A DNA stretch of 64,000 bases from Erwinia psidii (lineage in GTDB: Bacteria; Pseudomonadota; Gammaproteobacteria; Enterobacterales; Enterobacteriaceae). The translations under genes were made by a program, and so were the position numbers. How positions within the stretch are numbered: position 1 is the first letter of the stretch; every line of letters starts with the position of its first letter. The stretch covers positions 1 to 64,000 of the forward strand of contig NZ_RHHM01000007.1 in the NCBI RefSeq assembly GCF_003846135.1, in the 5' to 3' direction. The notes under the pieces were generated by a model. It did not search any database and was not told where the DNA came from. It was given only the letters and a program-made list of their open reading frames with translations. Of this stretch, positions 2,203-28,585 are shown in pieces.

Positions 2203-4035
2203 TTAGTGTTTCAGCGAATAAAAGATTTTCTCCGCCAGAAATCTGGAGATCCCCGGAACTTTCGCTATCTCCTCAACAGAGGCATTGATAAGCGGTTGCA
2301 AACCTCCCATGTATTTAAGCAGCATCTGCCTGCGTTTGGGGCCAATTCCTTCAATCGCTTCGAGCGCACTGGTATTCTTCACTTTAGCCCGTTTATTACG
2401 ATGCCCCGTTATTGCATGATTGTGAGAGTCATCACGGATATGCTGAATTACGTGCAGGGCTGGGGAATCCGGGGGAAGTGAAATCCCTTCGCCTTCCGGT
2501 TCGAAAAACAGAGTTTCCAGTCCGGCTTTCCGGTCCGTCCCTTTTGCCACACCTAACAGCACTGGCCGTTCTTTATCCCAGTTAACATCAAGATCGGCAA
2601 ACACCTGCTTTGCCTGCCCTAGTTGCCCCTTTCCTCCATCAATCAGGATCACATCAGGGACCTTACTGTCGATCAGCTCCTTACCGTAACGTCGGCACAA
2701 AACCTGATGCATCGCCGCATAATCATCACCGGGAGTGATACCGGCAATGTTGTAGCGACGATATTCCGAACGCAGCGGACCGTTATGATCGAATACCACA
2801 CAGGAAGCGACCGTCTGTTCGCCCATCGTGTGGCTGATATCAAAACATTCCATCCGGTTTATCGCGGGAAGATCCAGCAACTCCGCCAACGCCTGTAATC
2901 GCTGATGAATGGTGGACTGCTGCGACAAGCGACTGAGCAAGGCGGTACTGGCATTAGTACGGGCAAGTTTCAGATAACGGGCCCTGTCACCGCGCGGTTT
3001 GCTCTGGATAGAGACGCGGCGTCCCACCATTTCGGTGAGCGATTCTGCCAGCAAATCTTTTTCAGGCAGGATGAAATCAAGCAGGATATCACCGGGTAAC
3101 GTTCGCGCCTGGCTACCCTGTAAATAGAACTGGCCAACGAAAGTCTGTACCACTTCCGACAATTCGGTGCCTCCGGGGACCTTGGGAAAATAACTGCGGC
3201 TGCCTAACACTTTGCCCTGGCGGATAAACAGAACGTGCAGGCAGGCTATACCCGCGTCGAAAGCCACGCCGATAACATCCAGATCGTCACCGTTGTTTGA
3301 AACAAACTGGCGTTCCGTTACCCTTCTGACGGCCTGAATCTGATCGCGAAGACGTGCTGCTTCTTCAAATTTTAATGACTGGCTGGCTGCTTCCATCCGG
3401 CTGACCAACTGCTTCAGGACCTGATCATCTTTACCTGAGAGAAACAGACGAACATATTCGATCTGCTGTGCATACTCTTCTTCACTCACCAACCCTTTTA
3501 CGCACGGTCCAAGACAGCGGCCAATCTGATATTGCAGACAAGGCCGTGAGCGATTGCGATACACGCTGTTTTCACACTGACGTACCGGGAAAATTTTCTG
3601 CAACAAAGACAGGGTTTCCCGAACCGCATAGCCATTTGGAAATGGTCCGAAATAGTCACCCTTCGCATGTTTGGCACCGCGATGACTGGCAAGGCGAGGA
3701 TGTTTATCAGCGCTGAGAAAAATATAAGGGTAGGATTTATCATCACGCAGCAGGACGTTGTAGCGAGGCTGGTACAGTTTTATGTAATTGTGTTCAAGCA
3801 GCAGAGCCTCTGTTTCAGAATGCGTTACCGTGACATCAATCTGACAAATACTTGCCACCAGCGCTTCAGTTTTACGGCTGCTGTGATTGCCACGAAAATA
3901 ACTCGAAAGGCGCTTTTTAAGGTCTTTTGCTTTGCCTACGTAGATAACCGTGCCGTCGGCATCATACATACGATAAACGCCAGGCTGACTGGTTACAGAT
4001 TTGAGAAAAGATTTGGCATCAAAAGCTTCATTCAC
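2203..4035 (-). CDS. uvrC: Excinuclease ABC subunit UvrC
   Basis: The nuclease subunit of UvrABC nucleotide-excision repair, which cuts both sides of a lesion after UvrB loading. The 610 residues match the E. coli length. An N-terminal GIY-YIG domain ([21 protein letters not shown] begins near residue 19) makes the 3' cut. A cysteine cluster ([13 protein letters not shown]) and the UVR UvrB-binding segment ([14 protein letters not shown]) follow. The RNase H-like domain that makes the 5' cut begins near [13 protein letters not shown], and the helix-hairpin-helix pair is at the C-terminus ([22 protein letters not shown]). The start overlaps the end of uvrY by 8 bases, so the two are co-transcribed as in E. 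coli. Confidence 0.98.
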
Positions 4036-4678
4036 TACTGATTAATGACTCCGCGTTGAACAGGCCATGTCGGATAGCAAGGTGCGTTAGCTCGACATCG
4101 CCACTGATATTAAGTTTGCTGAACATTCTGTAACGATAGCTGTTCACCGTTTTTGGGCTCAGATTAAGCTGTTCAGAAATATCCGCCACTTTCTGTCCCT
4201 TGGTAATCATCAGCATAATTTGCAATTCGCGTTCTGACAAACTGTCAAACGGTGAATCCGTTTTTTGCGGCTCAATCTGGCTCAGCGCCATCTGTTGTGC
4301 AATGTCAGAGGCTATATAACGCTGACCGGCATTAACCTGACGAATAGCGTTAACGACTTCCTGTGGTGCAGCACCTTTACTCAGATAGCCAGCCTGCATC
4401 ACACGTGCCGGAAGAGGATTTTCAGTATGAATCGTTAACATAATGATTTTAATACCGGGATTGTAACGCACAATCTTGCGGGTTGCTTCGAGGCCGCCAA
4501 TTCCCGGCATATTCATATCCATCAACACCACATTAACGGGGTTGGACCGGCACCATTTCACCGCCTCTTCGCCGCAGTTTGCTTCACCGACAACCTGAAA
4601 ACCTTTGATGTCTTCCAGTATACGGCGAATACCTGCACGCACCAGTTCATGGTCATCAACAAGAAGAACGCTTATCAA
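4028..4678 (-). CDS. uvrY: Response regulator UvrY (GacA/SirA family), with a 3-residue receiver deletion
   Basis: Response regulator of the BarA-UvrY system, which activates the csrB/csrC small RNAs and so relieves CsrA repression. The N-terminal receiver has acidic residues DD at 8-9, phospho-acceptor D54 in [10 protein letters not shown]82 and K101. The C-terminal LuxR-type HTH is clear ([18 protein letters not shown], then [17 protein letters not shown]). At 216 residues it is slightly short: the usual [13 protein letters not shown] reads [10 protein letters not shown], so three residues are missing just before strand beta-5 and the switch lysine. The deletion is in frame, so the protein is probably made. 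The gene overlaps uvrC. Confidence 0.96.
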
Positions 4679-4902: not shown

Positions 4903-5127
4903 ATGAGTGATACTGATTTTTCTACCGGCAATGGAACTCAGGATTTGTCAGAAGAGATTGCCTGCATGAAGGCTCTGGTTACATTTATGCTTAAGGCAAT
5001 GGGCCAGGCAGACGCAGGCAAGGTTATCATTAATATGGAACATTATATTGCCCAGCTGACCGATCGGCATCAGGCCGACGTTTTCGCCCGCACCATTGGT
5101 CAAATAAAGCAGGCCTATCGCCAGTAA
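4903..5127 (+). CDS. yecF: YecF, DUF2594 family small protein
   Basis: A 74-residue protein whose middle and C-terminus (LKAMGQADAGKVI, then TIGQIKQAYRQ) match E. coli YecF, a DUF2594 protein of unknown function. It is predicted soluble and helical, with no signal peptide or membrane segment. An AAGGGG ribosome binding site precedes the ATG by about five bases. It is divergent from uvrY, with 224 bases between the two starts, the arrangement found in E. coli between uvrY and sdiA. No function is inferred. Confidence 0.9.
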   Translation: MSDTDFSTGNGTQDLSEEIACMKALVTFMLKAMGQADAGKVIINMEHYIAQLTDRHQADVFARTIGQIKQAYRQ

Positions 5128-5151
5128 CTCTCTGTGCGCTGACCGCCCATC

Positions 5152-5208
5152 AGCCCGACGTTAGCATGACCTTATCATTTTATTGCTGAGTAATGGCAAC
5201 GTCGGGCT
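5152..5208. terminator. Inverted repeat between yecF and luxI, possible terminator
   Basis: AGCCCGACGTT at 5152-5162 pairs perfectly with AACGTCGGGCT at 5198-5208 across a 35-base loop. A second pair, ATGACCTT at 5166-5173 and AAGGTCAT at 5220-5227, interleaves with it. The two genes here converge, so a bidirectional terminator is the simple reading, but the loop is long and no real T tract follows. Confidence 0.4.
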
Positions 5209-5280
5209 TTCCATACAACAAGGTCATAAAGTCTCTCATGGTGCCGGAGAGTTGACCCGCTACGCTTTACCGTTCTGCGC

Positions 5281-5910
5281 TCAGCGCCCTCGTCCGTTCC
5301 AGGTGGAAGAAACCCCAAAAGTGGGCAATACTTCTTCAGGACTGAAACGGCGCACCCCCCGGAACCGGCTGGCAAGATGAGGTTGATTCGTCGGTATTTT
5401 GACCGCAAACAGATTTTCTTCTGACTGAATGATACCCGCCGTTAGCTGTTGATAATCGACAAGATGTTGAGTAAACATCTGTTCCAACATTGGCGTTGCT
5501 GCACTGTAAAGGAAGTCAATGCCTGATTGCCCTGCCAGTTGAACACTATGCCAGAGAATGCTCAGCGGTAACTCAGACTCAACATCAAGGCGGGCTGAAA
5601 AACGCGACATTTCCCAGGCCGCCCCCTGGGGCTCAACCACAGGGCGAGCTGTCACCTCACCCAGTCCATTCACCGACGGTGCTTCCCATGGCATCAGACG
5701 AGCACAACCGCAAATCCCTTTCAGTACATCCCAGGCAATCAGCCAGATAACATCAGAACGGTCAAAACGGTCATATTCTTGCCCGGGAGTACTTAAACGA
5801 GGCGGAACAGGCCATCCTTCGCCACGGGCAAAAACGCTGTAGCGATAGCTGCCCAATTCTGCCAGCAGAGAGGATGGCATGTCCTTAAGCTTGGTTTGGA
5901 TAATTTTCAT
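5281..5910 (-). CDS. Acyl-homoserine-lactone synthase (LuxI family)
   Basis: Makes N-acyl-homoserine-lactone signals from S-adenosylmethionine and an acyl donor. The reading frame extends to 5946, but the ATG at 5910 gives the family N-terminus and has GGAGAG eight bases upstream, leaving 209 residues, a normal LuxI length. Family hallmarks are present: RYSVF near residue 24, W in EGWPVP, the acidic pair in EYDRFD, CGCARLMP with the conserved Arg, and WEMSRF carrying the catalytic Glu and Arg. It appears intact. It sits where E. coli has sdiA, and the luxR-type gene just upstream on the same strand is broken, so its cognate regulator must be elsewhere or absent. The acyl chain made cannot be told from sequence. 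Confidence 0.93.
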   Translation of the reverse strand: MKIIQTKLKDMPSSLLAELGSYRYSVFARGEGWPVPPRLSTPGQEYDRFDRSDVIWLIAWDVLKGICGCARLMPWEAPSVNGLGEVTARPVVEPQGAAWEMSRFSARLDVESELPLSILWHSVQLAGQSGIDFLYSAATPMLEQMFTQHLVDYQQLTAGIIQSEENLFAVKIPTNQPHLASRFRGVRRFSPEEVLPTFGVSSTWNGRGR

Positions 5911-5957
5911 TATTATTTCTCTCCAGGGGGCATTCCTTTGATTCATTCGGGGTTATC

Positions 5958-5974
5958 TGCCCTGCCGCAAGGCA
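5958..5974. promoter_or_regulatory. 17-bp near-perfect palindrome upstream of luxI
   Basis: TGCCCTGCCGCAAGGCA is an inverted repeat around a single central base with one mismatched pair (7 of 8 positions symmetric). It lies 48-64 bases upstream of the luxI start and 50 bases beyond the luxR-remnant stop, where a lux-box-like operator for a LuxR protein would be expected. It does not match the V. fischeri lux box; regulator identity is inference. Confidence 0.35.
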
Positions 5975-6024
5975 AACAACCGCTTGTCAATTTGAAAGCA
6001 CTAAATCCGGTAGTTGTCACTTAC

Positions 6025-6508
6025 CTAAAACAAACCGATTGCTACCGCATAAAAAACCACCTGCGTCCTGTTAAAAATACTAAAACTTTTGGTTGTACTA
6101 TTGGGTGAAAATCTGTCGTATGTACTGGAAAAGAGCAGTTCAGCAATGTCTCAGAAAATATTCACCCCCAGCAGGCCATTTGAAAAATTTGGTTTCACGC
6201 TGGCTCAAATGCATATTAATCACCAACATGTAAATTTTTTCCAGAAGTCCTGACACCTCGTCAATAAGGTCCGAAAAATAGTGTAATTCAGGATGCCTTT
6301 CTGCATAAATAGCATATTGCCAACTGACATTACCTGGCACTACAGATAATACGCTAATGGTCCGGTTTTTCACTATCCCATAACACGAAAATCCATAGCG
6401 CACGCCGGACTTTTTACTGCGTATAGCCGGAAATCCTTTCCTGACAGCAGCATAATCCATCCACCATAGCCGTGCCGTAACGGGCACTGTTTGACAGACG
6501 GGGCACAT
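6025..6508 (-). pseudogene. Broken LuxR/SdiA-type quorum-sensing regulator
   Basis: The open segment 6140-6508 carries the end of an autoinducer-binding domain (GVRYGFSCYG, TISVLSV) and the start of the HTH (LSQRETKFFKWPAGG, compare E. coli SdiA LSKREKE-LKWTAEGK). After a frameshift near 6155, the next frame holds an in-frame stop and then DIAELL, a garbled recognition helix, and NRTQVVFYAVAIGLF ending at a TAG at 6025-6027; this last piece matches the SdiA C-terminus NKTQVACYAAATGLI. The N-terminal domain is mostly unreadable upstream of 6508. The remnant is tandem with luxI and at the ancestral sdiA position, so it is a dead sdiA or a dead cognate luxR. Confidence 0.85.
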
Positions 6509-6599
6509 GGAACCGATTACTTTTGCCAGGTGTTAACGGTTTTTTGCGAAGCATGGTCGTCAATAACTATTTGTAGCCGCTTAAAAGCTCAGAGGGCAG

Positions 6600-7144
6600 A
6601 AATACAAGCCCCCCTCTTCTGCTCACGAGGACCGTCTCTAACTAACTGAAAAAAAACACTTATCACATCAACTAAAATATATTCACAGTAAAAAGGACAT
6701 CACGAAAAACAGGCACAGACAGTACTGAAGGTGAGATTTCTTTTTATCAAAAATGGCAGTATAAACTGGGTCCCTGCGATGTAATACAGTGGAAAACTGG
6801 GATTTACTTTATATATAATTCAATGCATTAGAGAAAAACTTCGCTGAGGGTATCCATGAAATTTAACATTGGCTTTCCTGTTAATCAGCCATTTAAAAGA
6901 TGGGGGCCGACTGACCAAACATAAAATATTATTTTTCCTGATGTTAAATTTTTAATTTGTCTTTATATACATTAGTTAACATTAATGAATTAGCAACTGA
7001 GTTTTTAATTATCTCCAGGCTGGTCCGGCAGATGAACGTTACCGCAAATACCGCTCCAGACGGCGGTTTTGAGTGATTAGCGCCTGGTGACGGCGGTAAT
7101 CAGTGAAACCCAGTAGCAGCAGGAGGTCTTGCCGGAAATAATCG
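6600..7144. other. AT-rich intergenic stretch without recognisable genes
   Basis: Both strands were read and no gene, RNA or strong repeat was seen. A 22-codon frame starting at 6856 is too short to support. Composition is more AT-rich than the flanking core genes, consistent with decayed or acquired DNA. Confidence 0.5.
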
Positions 7145-7486
7145 CTATCCTTCCAGTGCAGCAGAGGATGATGCATGGCACTGCACATAATAAAACGGAC
7201 GCCACATCTCACTGGTCAGTAGCATCAGCGACGTTTTACGATGCCCGTCCTGATGGTCTGACAACGCGCCAGCTATCTCTCCAAACGCTTCACATCGTCG
7301 AATGATGCAAAGCCCACCATTGTTGCGGCAGGTAAAACCCTCAGAGGCAATCTCAATGTTCACCTGTTTCTCCCCGGCATCCACGCTGTTCATAATGAGT
7401 CCGGTAACCGCCTTACCGAAGGAACCGGCCTGACTGTAAATGATGTGATGGCTAATTTGAGGGGCAGGTTCAAAAGGGCAGCGCAC
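7145..7486 (-). pseudogene. Fragment of a GHKL-type ATP-binding protein
   Basis: The 113-codon fragment contains the N-box and G1-box style sequence of HSP90-like ATPases (AVTGLIMNSVDAGEKQVNIE, then GFTCRNNGG where an intact protein has D-G-x-G). A worn copy of the following segment is also visible (EAFGEIAGALSDHQDG). The catalytic DxGxG is lost and the rest of the protein is missing on both sides. Proteins of this type occur on integrative elements and plasmids of enterobacteria; that link is from memory and not tested here. Next to it, 7563-7620 encodes a short phage-like N-terminus (MKELTEQLAHRAV) that soon hits a stop. Confidence 0.5.
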
Positions 7487-7924
7487 AGAAAGATCCGTTG
7501 TGGGGTTTACGGCGCTATTTTCAGGACGGGTGTGACGGGGTAAAAAAGAACGCTGACCGGTGATATGAAAGAATTAACAGAACAACTGGCACACAGAGCG
7601 GTGGCGCATGATAGCGCTCAAAGATAAAACCGCAAAATGACCCGTCAATGTGACGTGACGGCATACGTCCCCCAAATCGAAGACGCTGAAAAATACAAAG
7701 CCACTATTATAAAGCTAATAAAGTAAGCTATCCGATTAACCCACTACCAGAATGACCTGTTCTCAGAGGAGTCTGCTCTCACTGCAATTTTCTCCGCGGG
7801 TGATGATATATTCACCAGATTGCAGATTTAAAGTATGGTCAAAAACAGGATTGACAGCAGGATATTAAGCCCGGCCCGCTGGAAAAAATACCCCTTCTTT
7901 ATTTTAAAAAACGGAGAAAACGCT

Positions 7925-8699
7925 ATGGATTCGGCATTGCTGTCAATGATGCAGTCAAATAAAGCCTGGACAGAAACAATGGTCAATATGGAAGCACGCA
8001 GGCTGATAAATCTGGCCAATCAGCTTGCGTCCTTATCATCTGAATGACGGCCTGACGCGCATTAAATTTTGCCAGAAAATAAAAGAGGTTATGGATCAAC
8101 AGATTGCGCCTACCCGCAAAGCCAAATCAGACGAGGAGTGTATCGCCTGCATCTCGGCGCTACAAGCAGAGCCGGATGCTGCGAATGAAAACAGCATAGC
8201 TTTACGCGAAGGTCGAATTTATCAAAGAAAACAACAAGATTGTTGGCTACGTTATCCCTGCCGTCCACATCGTGGCATCCAGGATTTCCGTTATCGGAGG
8301 TGCCCGATGACACCTCCAGGAATACTTGCAAGGGCTATTCTTGTTATTAATGGGGTTAATGGACTTTCAAAAGAAATGATTCCCCGTAGATATGGCGAAG
8401 AGAATAAGACCGGGGGGATCTTTGCTGATGGTGCGACAGAACTCGCGAAATTCATGGGCTTCACGCCTCAAGCAGGTTTAGCCTTTTATAATGTCATGAC
8501 CTTAAGCGCCAGCGTTTACAGCATGTTTGGTCTTGCAACAAAACCGGGCGCATGGTGCTTATTCAAATGGTTGCCACGTGACTATTTTCGTAAGGTAGAT
8601 ACGATGAGCCGCCCTAAATTAACGATGAAAATAGTGGGTTATGGTGTGAAAGCAAAAGTCATATTTGATTTCCTGAATATGGAAACAATTTCAGACTAA
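7925..8699 (+). pseudogene. Frameshifted DUF4225 domain protein
   Basis: Three frames add up to one DUF4225-like protein. The first starts with ATG at 7925 (MDSALLSMMQSNKAWTET) and ends at 8047. The second supplies HLNDGLTRIKFCQKIKEV onward. The third, 8210-8308, reads VEFIKENNKIVGYVIPAVHI and stops, after which frame two resumes at TPPGILARAILVINGVNGL. The last 115 residues (GGIFADGATELAKFMGF, LPRDYFRKVDTMSRPKLTMK, GYGVKAKVIFDFL) are intact in style. At least three frame breaks make it non-functional. The function of DUF4225 proteins is unknown to me; they occur in plant-associated enterobacteria and pseudomonads. Confidence 0.75.
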
Positions 8700-8802
8700 A
8701 CACGATTCATTTACCAGTATCTCCATGATTTTCATACCAATACTGGCGGTTGTATAAACGTTATAATCAAAATAGCAATGAATAATGACAGACCACCACC
8801 GA

Positions 8803-9009
8803 CTATTTGGGTTCCGAAACAAACAAAAGAAGAAAGATAAAAACAAGCATGCATGCCGATGAAATCCAAATCAGAACCCTGAATTTGGTCGCCAGCTCTT
8901 GTATAGCTTCGTCCAGCGTTCCGCCGTAGCTATCAATATTGATTTTTATTTTGCCGGGGTCTTCCTGGCTAAAACCGGATTGCAGTAATCTCTCTTCACT
9001 GACGTTCAT
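8803..9009 (-). CDS. Small C-tail-anchored membrane protein, unknown function
   Basis: About 68 residues: a charged N-terminal half (SGFSQEDPGKIKINIDSYGG) and one C-terminal hydrophobic segment (VLIWISSACMLVFIFLLLFV), so probably an inner-membrane protein with its N-terminus in the cytoplasm. The second ATG was chosen because AAGGGA sits eight bases before it; the first ATG at 9018 overlaps that Shine-Dalgarno sequence. It converges on the DUF4225 remnant. I do not recognise the family. It is the only intact-looking gene in this decayed stretch, apart from the DUF4396 gene at its right end. Confidence 0.5.
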   Translation of the reverse strand: MNVSEERLLQSGFSQEDPGKIKINIDSYGGTLDEAIQELATKFRVLIWISSACMLVFIFLLLFVSEPK

Positions 9010-9247
9010 CTCTTTCATCCCTTAAAGTAATATCTGCAAAGATATGACAGAAATTTTGCAGTAAATCACCCCTAACAACATCACTTAACCAACGCATCCA
9101 CCTCGATAAACCCCCTTTTATTCGTGGTAAAAACCCGCTTCTCGCGGGCGCTTTGCCGCCCGTACCCTGCGGGATTATCCAGCCAGCAAACCGCGCTACC
9201 TGAATAACTCACAGGCTAATAACACACTGCCCCACGGTCAGTTTTCT

Positions 9248-9717
9248 TCAGAACTCAGAGTATAACGGCGGTATCCGGCAGGCAGATATTCCACCCAATT
9301 CCGGTTCTCCCAGCCATCAGGTGTGGCCGATGACGACGAGCAAACTATCAGCGTTCTGTTTCCGCTGTCGATCAGATGCACCACAAAGCAGCTGCGGTGT
9401 CCCACTCCCTGCGGGTCGGCACCGGCTTTTCCAGACGACCGAGGATTTCTGTCTGAAGCCCTGCCAGCGACGCGCCGGCCAATCCTCTGCGGCGGTACGA
9501 TAAAATAATGCCGGCTGGCGCATCGGGCAGTAACTGCGCAACAGAATAACGCTTTCCTGGTAATGCGGTGACCGACAGCAGCATGGTTTTCTGCTCATCG
9601 GTCAGCGTGTTGCCCGGCTGGAGAGCATACAGCGGGCCTGCCGGTGCATCAGTACTGAAAGAAAGCAGTGCCGGATGAGAACGGTATTTTGATAATGGCC
9701 GTCACCTGGTCCATTAT
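9248..9717 (-). pseudogene. Broken gene of unknown function
   Basis: Reading the minus strand from an ATG near 9714 gives MDQVTAIIKIPFSSGTAF. A frameshift is needed near 9655 to continue into GPLYALQPGNTLTDEQKTML and LLPDAPAGIILSYRRRGLAG. A second frameshift near 9380 leads into VVHLIDSGNRTLIVCSSSA and WENRNWVEYLPAGYRRYTL, ending at TGA 9248-9250. The pieces read well as one protein of about 150 residues. I do not recognise the family. Confidence 0.45.
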
Positions 9718-9856
9718 CAGGAGCATATGCCTAAGAGACATTCTCACTAACGGACGCTGGTAATTTACTTCATCTGATACATAATCTGATTAACCAATGT
9801 CAGCGACAAATCCCCCCATCTCACCATTAGCTTATTATCCTGATAAGGAAAGCGTG

Positions 9857-10528
9857 ATGTTAGACAGACTGGCGATACTGTTCATTTTACTGGGCATCTG
9901 CACCGCAATCATGATTGCAAAAGACCTCATTCAACACCCTCAGCCCATAAAGATTATGAATCTGGTGTGGCCGCTTACGGGATTGTATATGCCCTTTATT
10001 GGCTGGCTGGCATGGTGGTATCTGGGCCGTAAAAGCCGGGCTGTTCTCCCCCTGCATCCCCTGCCCAAAAACCGTACCCCTGGCTTTAAACAGCTTTTTT
10101 CTTCAACCAGTCATTGTGCGGCAGGTTGTGTACTTGGCGATATTATCGCGGTGCCGATTATTTCACTGACCAAATCGCTTTCTGTTCACGCAACTCTGGC
10201 GACACATGCCATTCTCTCCCTCGGATTATCATTAATCTTTGGCATATTATTTCAGTATCTCGCCGTAAGGCAGATGGCAGGAATGACTTTTTTTCGTGCC
10301 GTCTGGCAGGCCATTAAAAGCGATATTTTTTCTCTGATGATTTATCAGGCCGGCATGTTTTTATATATGGCACTGGCGTTGCATTTTATTCTTAACAATC
10401 AGATTGAGCCGCTGGTAATACATTTCTGGTTTATGATGCAGCTGGCGTTATTGACCGGCTTCGCCTTTGCATGGCCGGCGAATAAATTCCTGTTGCAGCG
10501 TGGAATTAAATTCACCTTTCAGCGTTAA
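9857..10528 (+). CDS. DUF4396 multi-spanning membrane protein
   Basis: The open frame begins at 9797, but the ATG at 9857 is preceded by AAGGA with seven bases spacing and aligns with the family start, giving 223 residues. DUF4396 features are present: an N-terminal membrane segment, HPQPIKIMNLVWPLTGLY (about residues 31-48), and SHCAAGCVLGDII in mid-protein with the His and paired Cys typical of the family. About six further hydrophobic segments follow. Members are predicted inner-membrane proteins, and the His/Cys motif suggests metal handling, which is inference. It stands alone between the decayed region and cycA. Confidence 0.8.
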   Translation: MLDRLAILFILLGICTAIMIAKDLIQHPQPIKIMNLVWPLTGLYMPFIGWLAWWYLGRKSRAVLPLHPLPKNRTPGFKQLFSSTSHCAAGCVLGDIIAVPIISLTKSLSVHATLATHAILSLGLSLIFGILFQYLAVRQMAGMTFFRAVWQAIKSDIFSLMIYQAGMFLYMALALHFILNNQIEPLVIHFWFMMQLALLTGFAFAWPANKFLLQRGIKFTFQR

Positions 10529-24817: not shown

Positions 24818-24910
<93 letters not shown>

Positions 24911-25172: not shown

Positions 25173-25982
25173 TCAGACAAGCTGTAGACCGGTTCGCATG
25201 CGATAAAGTTCAGGAAACAATTCATGATTCAGCGTCGACCGCAGATAATCCACACCGCTGGTGCCACCACTTCCGGGACGATGACCAATAATACGTTCAA
25301 CCGTAGCAATGTGTTGGAAACGCCAGTTTTTGAAGCCCTGAGAGATATCGACCAGCTTTTCTCCCAGCTGATAGAGCGACCAGTACGTATAGCGCTGCTG
25401 ATAAATCTGTAGCCATGCCTGCTCCACGCCGTCTTTATTACTCAGAGGAGATGATATATGACGCTCTAACAGGCAGATAACCTCATCATTTAAAGAAGGC
25501 TCATCAAGACGGGTTCTCAGAGCATGAAGCGCCCCCAGATTGCCAGAATAGTCTTCCAACGTATTGGGGTTTTTATTGCCAAGCAAAAACTCAATTTCCC
25601 TGAATTGATGTGATTGTTTCCCTGAAGCGCTGCCCAGCACATCGCGCATAGCTAAAAAGTCTACCGGACTGAGTGTCGCCAGTACTTCCCAGGCATGAAT
25701 AAGATGCAACATAATAGTATGGGCACGGTTCAAAGAACTTAAAGTGCGATCAACGTCATCCCTACGTATAAAGGATACCGCTTGCGTTAATTCATGGAGC
25801 AGTAGCTTCATCCAAAGTTCAGAAGTTTGATGCTGAATAATGAAAAGCATTTCTTCCGGTACATCGGATAACATTTTTTGACTACTGAGTATCCTGTCAA
25901 GCTGAAGATAGTCGCTGTAGTCCATCACGGCATTATCGTACAAAGTCGAATTTTTGGTCTGAGAAAATGGGCACTGCATCAT
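25173..25982 (-). CDS. Tryptophan 2,3-dioxygenase
   Basis: Haem enzyme that opens the indole ring of L-tryptophan to N-formylkynurenine. The 269 residues are a normal bacterial length. Family motifs are FIIQHQTSELWMKLLLHEL near residue 49, SGKQSHQFREIEFLLGN with the substrate-binding Arg, WRFQHIATVERIIG with the haem-ligand His, and GHRPGSGGTSGVDYLRSTL with the substrate Thr. AGGA lies four and seven bases before the two adjacent ATGs. No kynurenine formamidase or kynureninase gene is nearby. It is the only intact gene between the two tRNA-Ser copies, which marks it as island cargo. Confidence 0.93.
   Translation of the reverse strand: MMQCPFSQTKNSTLYDNAVMDYSDYLQLDRILSSQKMLSDVPEEMLFIIQHQTSELWMKLLLHELTQAVSFIRRDDVDRTLSSLNRAHTIMLHLIHAWEVLATLSPVDFLAMRDVLGSASGKQSHQFREIEFLLGNKNPNTLEDYSGNLGALHALRTRLDEPSLNDEVICLLERHISSPLSNKDGVEQAWLQIYQQRYTYWSLYQLGEKLVDISQGFKNWRFQHIATVERIIGHRPGSGGTSGVDYLRSTLNHELFPELYRMRTGLQLV

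Positions 25983-28492: not shown

Positions 28493-28585
<93 letters not shown>

What the first reader, a model, noticed from the sequence alone, without database searches (positions are those of the whole stretch)
5281..6508. Intact AHL synthase beside a dead luxR/sdiA gene at the ancestral sdiA position
luxI keeps all catalytic residues and a good ribosome binding site. The adjacent regulator is split by at least one frameshift and one stop, yet its C-terminal NRTQVVFYAVAIGLF still matches SdiA. A cell that makes signal but has lost the local receptor would be an orphan sender, or would use a LuxR encoded elsewhere. That luxI lies between yecF and the sdiA remnant suggests sdiA and a luxR/luxI pair share history at this locus.
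Basis: partly seen in the sequence, partly recalled or inferred. Interest (0 to 1): 0.75.

Follow-up and report, generated by a model that had tools for sequence, protein, structure and literature searches.

The report
Signal synthase outliving its dead receptor
In an Erwinia bacterium, the gene that should sense a cell-to-cell chemical signal has decayed while the neighbouring gene that should make the signal has stayed intact, a pattern that recurs in related bacteria and suggests the signal still matters without its original receptor.

Summary
Window 5281-5910(-) is an intact luxI-type synthase with all catalytic positions; 6029-6497(-) is the wreck of an SdiA-type luxR. Their shared history was published in 2012 (PMC3474713). 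The cell is not receptor-free: an intact EsaI/EsaR-like pair lies on contig C33.

New here: (1) The receptor remnant differs from E. mallotivora about equally at all three codon positions, while luxI, 120 bp away, keeps a coding pattern; so luxI was held by selection after the receptor died. (2) Among 105 Erwinia/Pantoea-group genomes with intact luxI, the receptor is broken or absent in 7 (at least 5 events) and altered at one end in 3. Of 98 Erwinia and Pantoea genomes none keeps the receptor without luxI; other genera were not searched for that. (3) Intact relatives carry a 20-bp palindrome between luxR and luxI, found in 33 of 33 receptor-intact Erwinia genomes without excess elsewhere; it is eroded in the window.

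Best reading: the SdiA-type receptor mainly amplified its own synthase, so the synthase can outlive it. Main rival: slow decay of the whole module. The product and its listener are untested.

The parts
5281..5910 (-). luxI-type synthase (ExpI/PhzI family of the sdiA locus), intact, 209 codons plus stop
5921..5924 (-). GGAG, likely ribosome binding site of luxI
   Evidence: sequence
5996..6015 (-). eroded copy of the 20-bp palindromic operator found between luxR and luxI in intact relatives (score 12.1 against 17.6-35.6 in 40 of 41 receptor-intact rows)
6029..6497 (-). remnant of the SdiA-type luxR gene, codons 82-240, several frame breaks, first third unrecognisable
4903..5127 (+). yecF (DUF2594), landmark of the sdiA locus
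4028..4678 (-). uvrY (sirA/gacA) response regulator, landmark of the sdiA locus
2203..4035 (-). uvrC, flanking gene used for the species tree
9797..10528 (+). DUF4396 gene, the next conserved neighbour on the luxR side (in E. mallotivora it lies about 0.65 kb from luxR)

Best explanation
This is the Erwiniaceae sdiA-luxI quorum-sensing module after loss of its receptor. In intact relatives the SdiA-type receptor most likely binds a 20-bp palindrome between luxR and luxI and raises luxI: a feedback loop whose operator has no recognisable second copy in the genome (site shown in Erwinia; binding and activation inferred). In the window the receptor has long been a pseudogene and the operator has eroded (shown). 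luxI stayed intact over that time (shown), so it was kept by selection (inferred from the contrast with the remnant). It is then expressed at an unregulated or basal level (inferred) and makes an AHL or AHL-like signal (inferred from family and residues). That signal serves a listener other than the old receptor: the EsaR-like receptor of the same cell, or another organism (inferred; not distinguished).
For: Remnant against E. mallotivora: 33, 31 and 39% divergence at codon positions 1, 2, 3, where two functional receptors differ by 13, 12 and 57%. luxI of the same two genomes: 13, 10 and 46%. Positions 1+2: remnant 101 of 315, luxI 55 of 418, Fisher p = 1e-9; third positions alike (p = 0.14). 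No frame break in luxI; at 3 to 6 breaks per 474 bp as in the remnant, the chance of none in 627 bp would be 0.019 to 0.0004. luxI protein rate relative to core genes is no higher in the window (4.5) than in receptor-bearing E. mallotivora (5.0). Receptor broken or absent with luxI open in 7 of 105 genomes, at least 5 events on the tree. Operator with at most 2 mismatches at luxI in 33 of 33 receptor-intact Erwinia genomes; 8 other places in 37 genomes, against 56 forward and 53 reverse rows for the reversed control. Operator lost or weakened in the window. phzI mutants of Pantoea have phenotypes (PMC4863597, PMC4989142, passages).
Against: Branch omega of luxI on the window tip is 0.57 and not distinguishable from 1; I think it unreliable because dS is about 1.4, but it points to decay. 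Receptor-less tips as a group have higher luxI omega (median 0.164 against 0.038), faster protein change and more changes at conserved columns. In Pantoea G488 the synthase has lost three residues of the motif E-Y-D-R-F-D. E. pyrifoliae gave no answer in two AHL biosensors. The kinship-corrected test of receptor loss against operator loss has no power (3 to 0, p = 0.25).
Confidence: 0.6

Rival explanations
1. Decay in progress: once the receptor was lost the synthase became nearly useless and is open only because it has not yet been hit. The locus is a dying quorum-sensing module.
For: Window tip omega 0.57, not different from 1. Higher luxI omega and more changes at conserved columns in receptor-less rows. 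Motif loss in G488, which has no intact AHL receptor anywhere. Operator erosion.
Against: Codon-position contrast between remnant and luxI, no frame break, no protein-rate rise against E. mallotivora. luxI open in all 7 receptor-less genomes over at least 5 events.
Confidence: 0.3
2. The synthase is kept because its signal is read by the EsaR-like receptor of the second pair (cross-talk inside the cell).
For: 6 of 7 receptor-less genomes hold another intact AHL-binding LuxR; the seventh, G488, has none and its synthase motif is damaged.
Against: 5 of 6 receptor-bearing genomes tested also hold another receptor, so the link is weak. No esa-box-like site before luxI beyond chance (box recalled). 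EsaI itself already supplies a signal.
Confidence: 0.3
3. The enzyme makes a signal that is not a standard AHL, so the usual receptors and biosensors are not its listeners.
For: Family scores under or near the Pfam cut-off; E. pyrifoliae with this gene set was silent in CV026 and NTL4 biosensors and its authors proposed an unknown signal (PMC2827408).
Against: Catalytic positions and profile match to TofI; PMC3474713 ascribes oxoC6-HSL to ExpI and PhzI.
Confidence: 0.2
4. Sequencing or assembly error broke the receptor frame.
For: The genome is a draft in 41 contigs.
Against: The remnant lacks its first third, diverges evenly over codon positions and is 35-48% identical at protein level where intact relatives are 47-76%.
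Confidence: 0.01

Closest known systems
SdiA with its ancestral synthase (ExpR/ExpI of Erwinia, PhzR/PhzI of Pantoea; PMC3474713)
   Same: Same locus beside uvrY, same gene order and same families.
   Different: Receptor dead and operator eroded in the window; the paper describes complete pairs in Erwinia and Pantoea and loss of the synthase, not of the receptor, elsewhere.
E. pyrifoliae EPYR_02385/02386 (PMC2827408)
   Same: SdiA-like receptor with a low-identity LuxI; authors proposed an unknown signal.
   Different: Receptor intact there.
LuxI solos of Roseobacter (PMC3824088) and Sphingobium (PMC4288048)
   Same: Synthase without a working adjacent receptor; in Sphingobium a truncated luxR lies beside it.
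   Different: Other families and gene contexts; there, the passages I saw show single cases or duplications, here receptor loss recurs at one conserved locus.
SdiA solo of E. coli and Salmonella
   Same: Half of the same ancestral module (PMC3474713).
   Different: Mirror image: receptor kept, synthase lost.

Membership tests
LuxI-type AHL synthase | Catalytic residues at the conserved positions | tested here: met
   the set is recalled, the alignment is with the EsaI ortholog of C33.
LuxI-type AHL synthase | Sequence relationship to solved AHL synthases | tested here: met
   38-row profile: TofI 9e-37, LasI 7e-13, EsaI 1.5e-3.
LuxI-type AHL synthase | Pfam PF00765 curated cut-off | tested here: inconclusive
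   Window protein 20.4 bits, cut-off 24; orthologs in G146, G060, G205 and G230 pass, in G030, G003 and G026 do not.
LuxI-type AHL synthase | Makes an acyl-homoserine lactone | not testable with these tools
SdiA ortholog | Position beside luxI, yecF and uvrY | tested here: met
   same place as the intact receptor of relatives.
SdiA ortholog | Sequence similarity to SdiA | tested here: met
   Remnant: NCBIfam SdiA E 0.005, receptor profile 51 and 16 bits, DNA E 1e-32; E. mallotivora receptor 281 bits over its full length, below the equivalog cut-off of 350.
SdiA ortholog | Open reading frame for a working receptor | tested here: not met
   Pseudogene.
LuxI solo / orphan sender | No intact luxR next to luxI | tested here: met
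LuxI solo / orphan sender | No AHL receptor in the cell (strict sense) | tested here: not met
   One intact PF03472 receptor on C33.

The most novel reading that the evidence does not exclude
In Erwiniaceae the SdiA-type receptor is not the output of this signal but a dispensable amplifier of a one-operator loop: its only near-consensus site in the genome is luxI itself. The real listener is elsewhere, in the EsaR-type system or outside the cell, which is why receptor loss has recurred with the synthase kept.
Probability: 0.3. Interest if true: 0.75.

Novelty: new variant of a known kind. Interest (0 to 1): 0.6.

Why it matters
A 2025 review says that loss of sdiA in some lineages would be expected, 'Yet, this did not occur' (PMC12086679, section 23). 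These genomes show that it did, several times, in the genera that keep the ancestral synthase. Lineages that lost receptor and operator give a natural experiment on what this poorly understood signal is for, a question raised in the E. pyrifoliae genome paper of 2010. The one-operator loop predicts that receptor mutants and synthase mutants should differ in phenotype, which can be tested directly.

Tried and rejected
Tip omega as proof of relaxation in the window: held unsafe, since dS is about 1.4 and the protein rate is not above that of E. mallotivora; reported as evidence against all the same. First species tree: G124 sat on a false long branch, which I put down to an in-frame stop dropped by the aligner; rebuilt with that codon masked. 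Stops reported inside luxI of several genomes: the frames from the true start are open, so they lie before it. Loss of the GlpM-like neighbour as a sign of local decay: rejected, it is also not found in 23 of 41 receptor-intact rows. An esa box before luxI: nothing beyond chance. Promoter and terminator scan of 5100-6600: 3 promoter-like sites against 1.7 in shuffles, none just before luxI; no terminator. Kinship-corrected test of receptor loss against operator loss: no power. A sign test of receptor-only against synthase-only losses is not used: the reverse case was searched only in Erwinia and Pantoea, where the receptor-only events number 3 or 4. Structure prediction: not returned, so no fold comparison was made. 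Rfam scan of the window: only tRNAs.

Full report
WHAT IS THERE. The window is contig C39 of a 4.50 Mb genome in 41 contigs. Its nearest named relative among the loci fetched is Erwinia mallotivora (luxI 79% identical; sister on the tree to the window plus G026). uvrC, uvrY and luxI lie on the minus strand, with yecF on plus between uvrY and luxI. luxI reads from 5910 to 5281, 209 codons, with GGAG ten bases before the ATG. Beyond it, 6497-6029 matches a DNA profile of 41 intact receptors (E 1e-32, codons 82-240). Two protein pieces in two frames score 51 and 16 bits, against a best of 4.9 in 200 shuffles. The first third of the gene is unrecognisable. In E. mallotivora the receptor is a full 240-codon frame in that place.

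IS THE SYNTHASE A LUXI. The window protein alone scores under the Pfam cut-off (20.4 against 24 bits), and orthologs fall on both sides of it. The 38-row family profile finds solved AHL synthases (3p2f 9e-37, LasI 7e-13, EsaI 1.5e-3). All positions aligned with the recalled catalytic residues are kept. Of 110 columns conserved in receptor-bearing rows the window differs at 4, none of them catalytic. The product is unknown.

IS THE CELL WITHOUT A RECEPTOR. No. The genome has one other PF03472 receptor and one PF00765 synthase over the cut-off, convergent on contig C33. That synthase is an EsaI ortholog (1k4j, E 5e-107). The receptor is an AHL-binding LuxR, called EsaR-like here for its place and partner.

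HOW OLD IS THE RECEPTOR LOSS. Against E. mallotivora the remnant differs at 33, 31 and 39% of first, second and third codon positions, where functional receptors differ at 13, 12, 57% (L034) or 22, 17, 55% (L035). luxI of the same two genomes differs at 13, 10 and 46%. At positions 1+2 the remnant has 101 of 315 changed and luxI 55 of 418 (Fisher p = 1e-9), while third positions are alike (62 of 159 and 98 of 209, p = 0.14). So the receptor has been without constraint for much of the branch while luxI was not. The remnant carries 5 to 7 indel runs not divisible by three, depending on the partner aligned. Even at 3 such breaks per 474 bp, none in luxI would have a chance of 0.019. The sister genome G026 also has a broken receptor, but with a coding signature still visible (24, 15, 48%), so its break looks younger.

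RECURRENCE. Genomes with an intact luxI of this family: 36 of 37 in Erwinia, 58 of 61 in Pantoea genus g170 and 11 in other genera among the 392 drawn; 105 in all. The receptor of the locus is intact in 33 + 54 + 8 = 95. It is clearly broken or absent in 7: the window; G026; G023, which by coordinates is E. endophytica; Pantoea G488; G091, by coordinates Erwinia sp. OLFS4; G124; and G146. G023 keeps a trace of the last third, and G091 a doubtful trace (E 0.003) of the start. In 3 Pantoea one end of the frame is altered: G497, G466, G469. Of the 98 Erwinia and Pantoea genomes none has an intact receptor without luxI. G004 has neither; G474 and G487 have no luxI, and G485 only luxI fragments, and none of the three has a receptor match at E up to 1e-20. 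The other genera were searched for the receptor only where luxI had been found, so the reverse loss was not looked for there. On a uvrC-uvrY tree of 51 rows the 7 need at least 5 changes, and 7 if the 3 altered ones are added. Within Erwinia and Pantoea the receptor-only events number 3, or 4 if the window and G026 are separate, against 0 of the reverse: suggestive, not significant. In other enteric bacteria the published pattern is the opposite (PMC3474713).

THE OPERATOR. In 40 of 41 receptor-intact rows a palindrome close to AACTACCAAATTTGGTAGTT starts 112-119 bases before the ATG of luxI; the exception is Pantoea sp. 1.19. Of the 7 receptor-less rows, G488 (26.0) and G026 (21.8) lie within the intact range of 17.6-35.6, the window (12.1) lies below it, and the other 4 are at chance level (p = 1e-4 for the groups, not corrected for kinship). 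Across 37 Erwinia genomes, with at most one mismatch it occurs in 32, at one place each, always next to the end of luxR (coordinates compared by eye). It is missing in the three receptor-broken genomes, in G004 and in G028. With two mismatches all 33 receptor-intact genomes have it and so does G026; there are 8 other places in 37 genomes, no more than the reversed control gives (56 forward and 53 reverse rows). So no second site is recognisable in Erwinia; more diverged sites could exist, and Pantoea genomes were not searched.

RESULTS AGAINST. Branch omega of luxI on the window tip is 0.57 and not distinguishable from 1. Pairwise dS is 1.4, the luxI protein rate relative to core genes is 4.5 in the window and 5.0 in E. 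mallotivora, and the codon-position pattern is that of a kept gene, so I do not read it as decay; but the number stands. As a group, receptor-less tips have higher luxI omega (median 0.164 against 0.038; receptor-bearing exceptions 0.375, 0.32, 0.20), faster protein change (p = 0.002, or 0.02 against the 24 longer intact branches) and more changes at conserved columns (p = 0.001). G488 has lost three residues of the motif E-Y-D-R-F-D, has a change at E100 and has no intact AHL receptor anywhere: there the enzyme is probably dead.

READING. The evidence fits a loop in which the SdiA-type receptor mainly raises its own synthase. Losing it unties signal production but does not remove the use of the signal, so the synthase can be kept for a time. 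Which listener keeps it useful is open: 6 of 7 receptor-less genomes hold another AHL receptor, and so do 5 of the 6 receptor-bearing genomes tested. Synthase mutants have phenotypes in relatives: phzI, adjacent by locus tag to phzR/sdiA, in Pantoea ananatis BRT175 in resistance to amoebal grazing (PMC4863597, passages), and phzI in P. eucalypti in symplasmata, restored by complementation (PMC4989142, passages; that it lies at this locus is not shown).

WHAT IS KNOWN AND WHAT IS NEW. The shared origin is known (PMC3474713, part 1 of 2, which holds the main text). luxI solos are known in roseobacters and Sphingobium, the latter even with a truncated luxR beside (PMC3824088 and PMC4288048, passages). 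A 2025 review says that loss of sdiA 'did not occur' (PMC12086679, passages and section 23). I saw no paper on receptor loss at this locus or on its operator in the listings of searches of an open-licence library; subscription journals are mostly missing from it, and a 2016 study of two LuxI/R homologs in P. ananatis was seen only in a reference list.

Noticed in passing
window 24820-24907 and 28495-28582: Two identical (88 of 88) tRNA-Ser(tga) genes 3.7 kb apart, with an ORF at 25176-25982(-) that looks like tryptophan 2,3-dioxygenase (name recalled).
   Followed up: partly
window 6510-9796: 3.3 kb of mostly non-coding debris between the luxR remnant and the DUF4396 gene, with a DUF4225 ORF at 8025-8699(+); E. 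mallotivora has about 0.65 kb there.
   Followed up: partly
L169 (Pantoea G488): Genome with an open luxI, no intact AHL receptor and no PF00765 match by the family search, whose luxI lacks three residues of a catalytic motif.
   Followed up: partly
L122-L131: 185-186-residue LuxI-like ORFs, 36-40% identical over the N-terminal half, with a luxR on the opposite strand, in other genera of the family.
   Followed up: no
L132 (G026) around luxI: yecF, the GlpM-like gene and DUF4396 were not found in the 16-kb stretch, yet luxI is intact.
   Followed up: no
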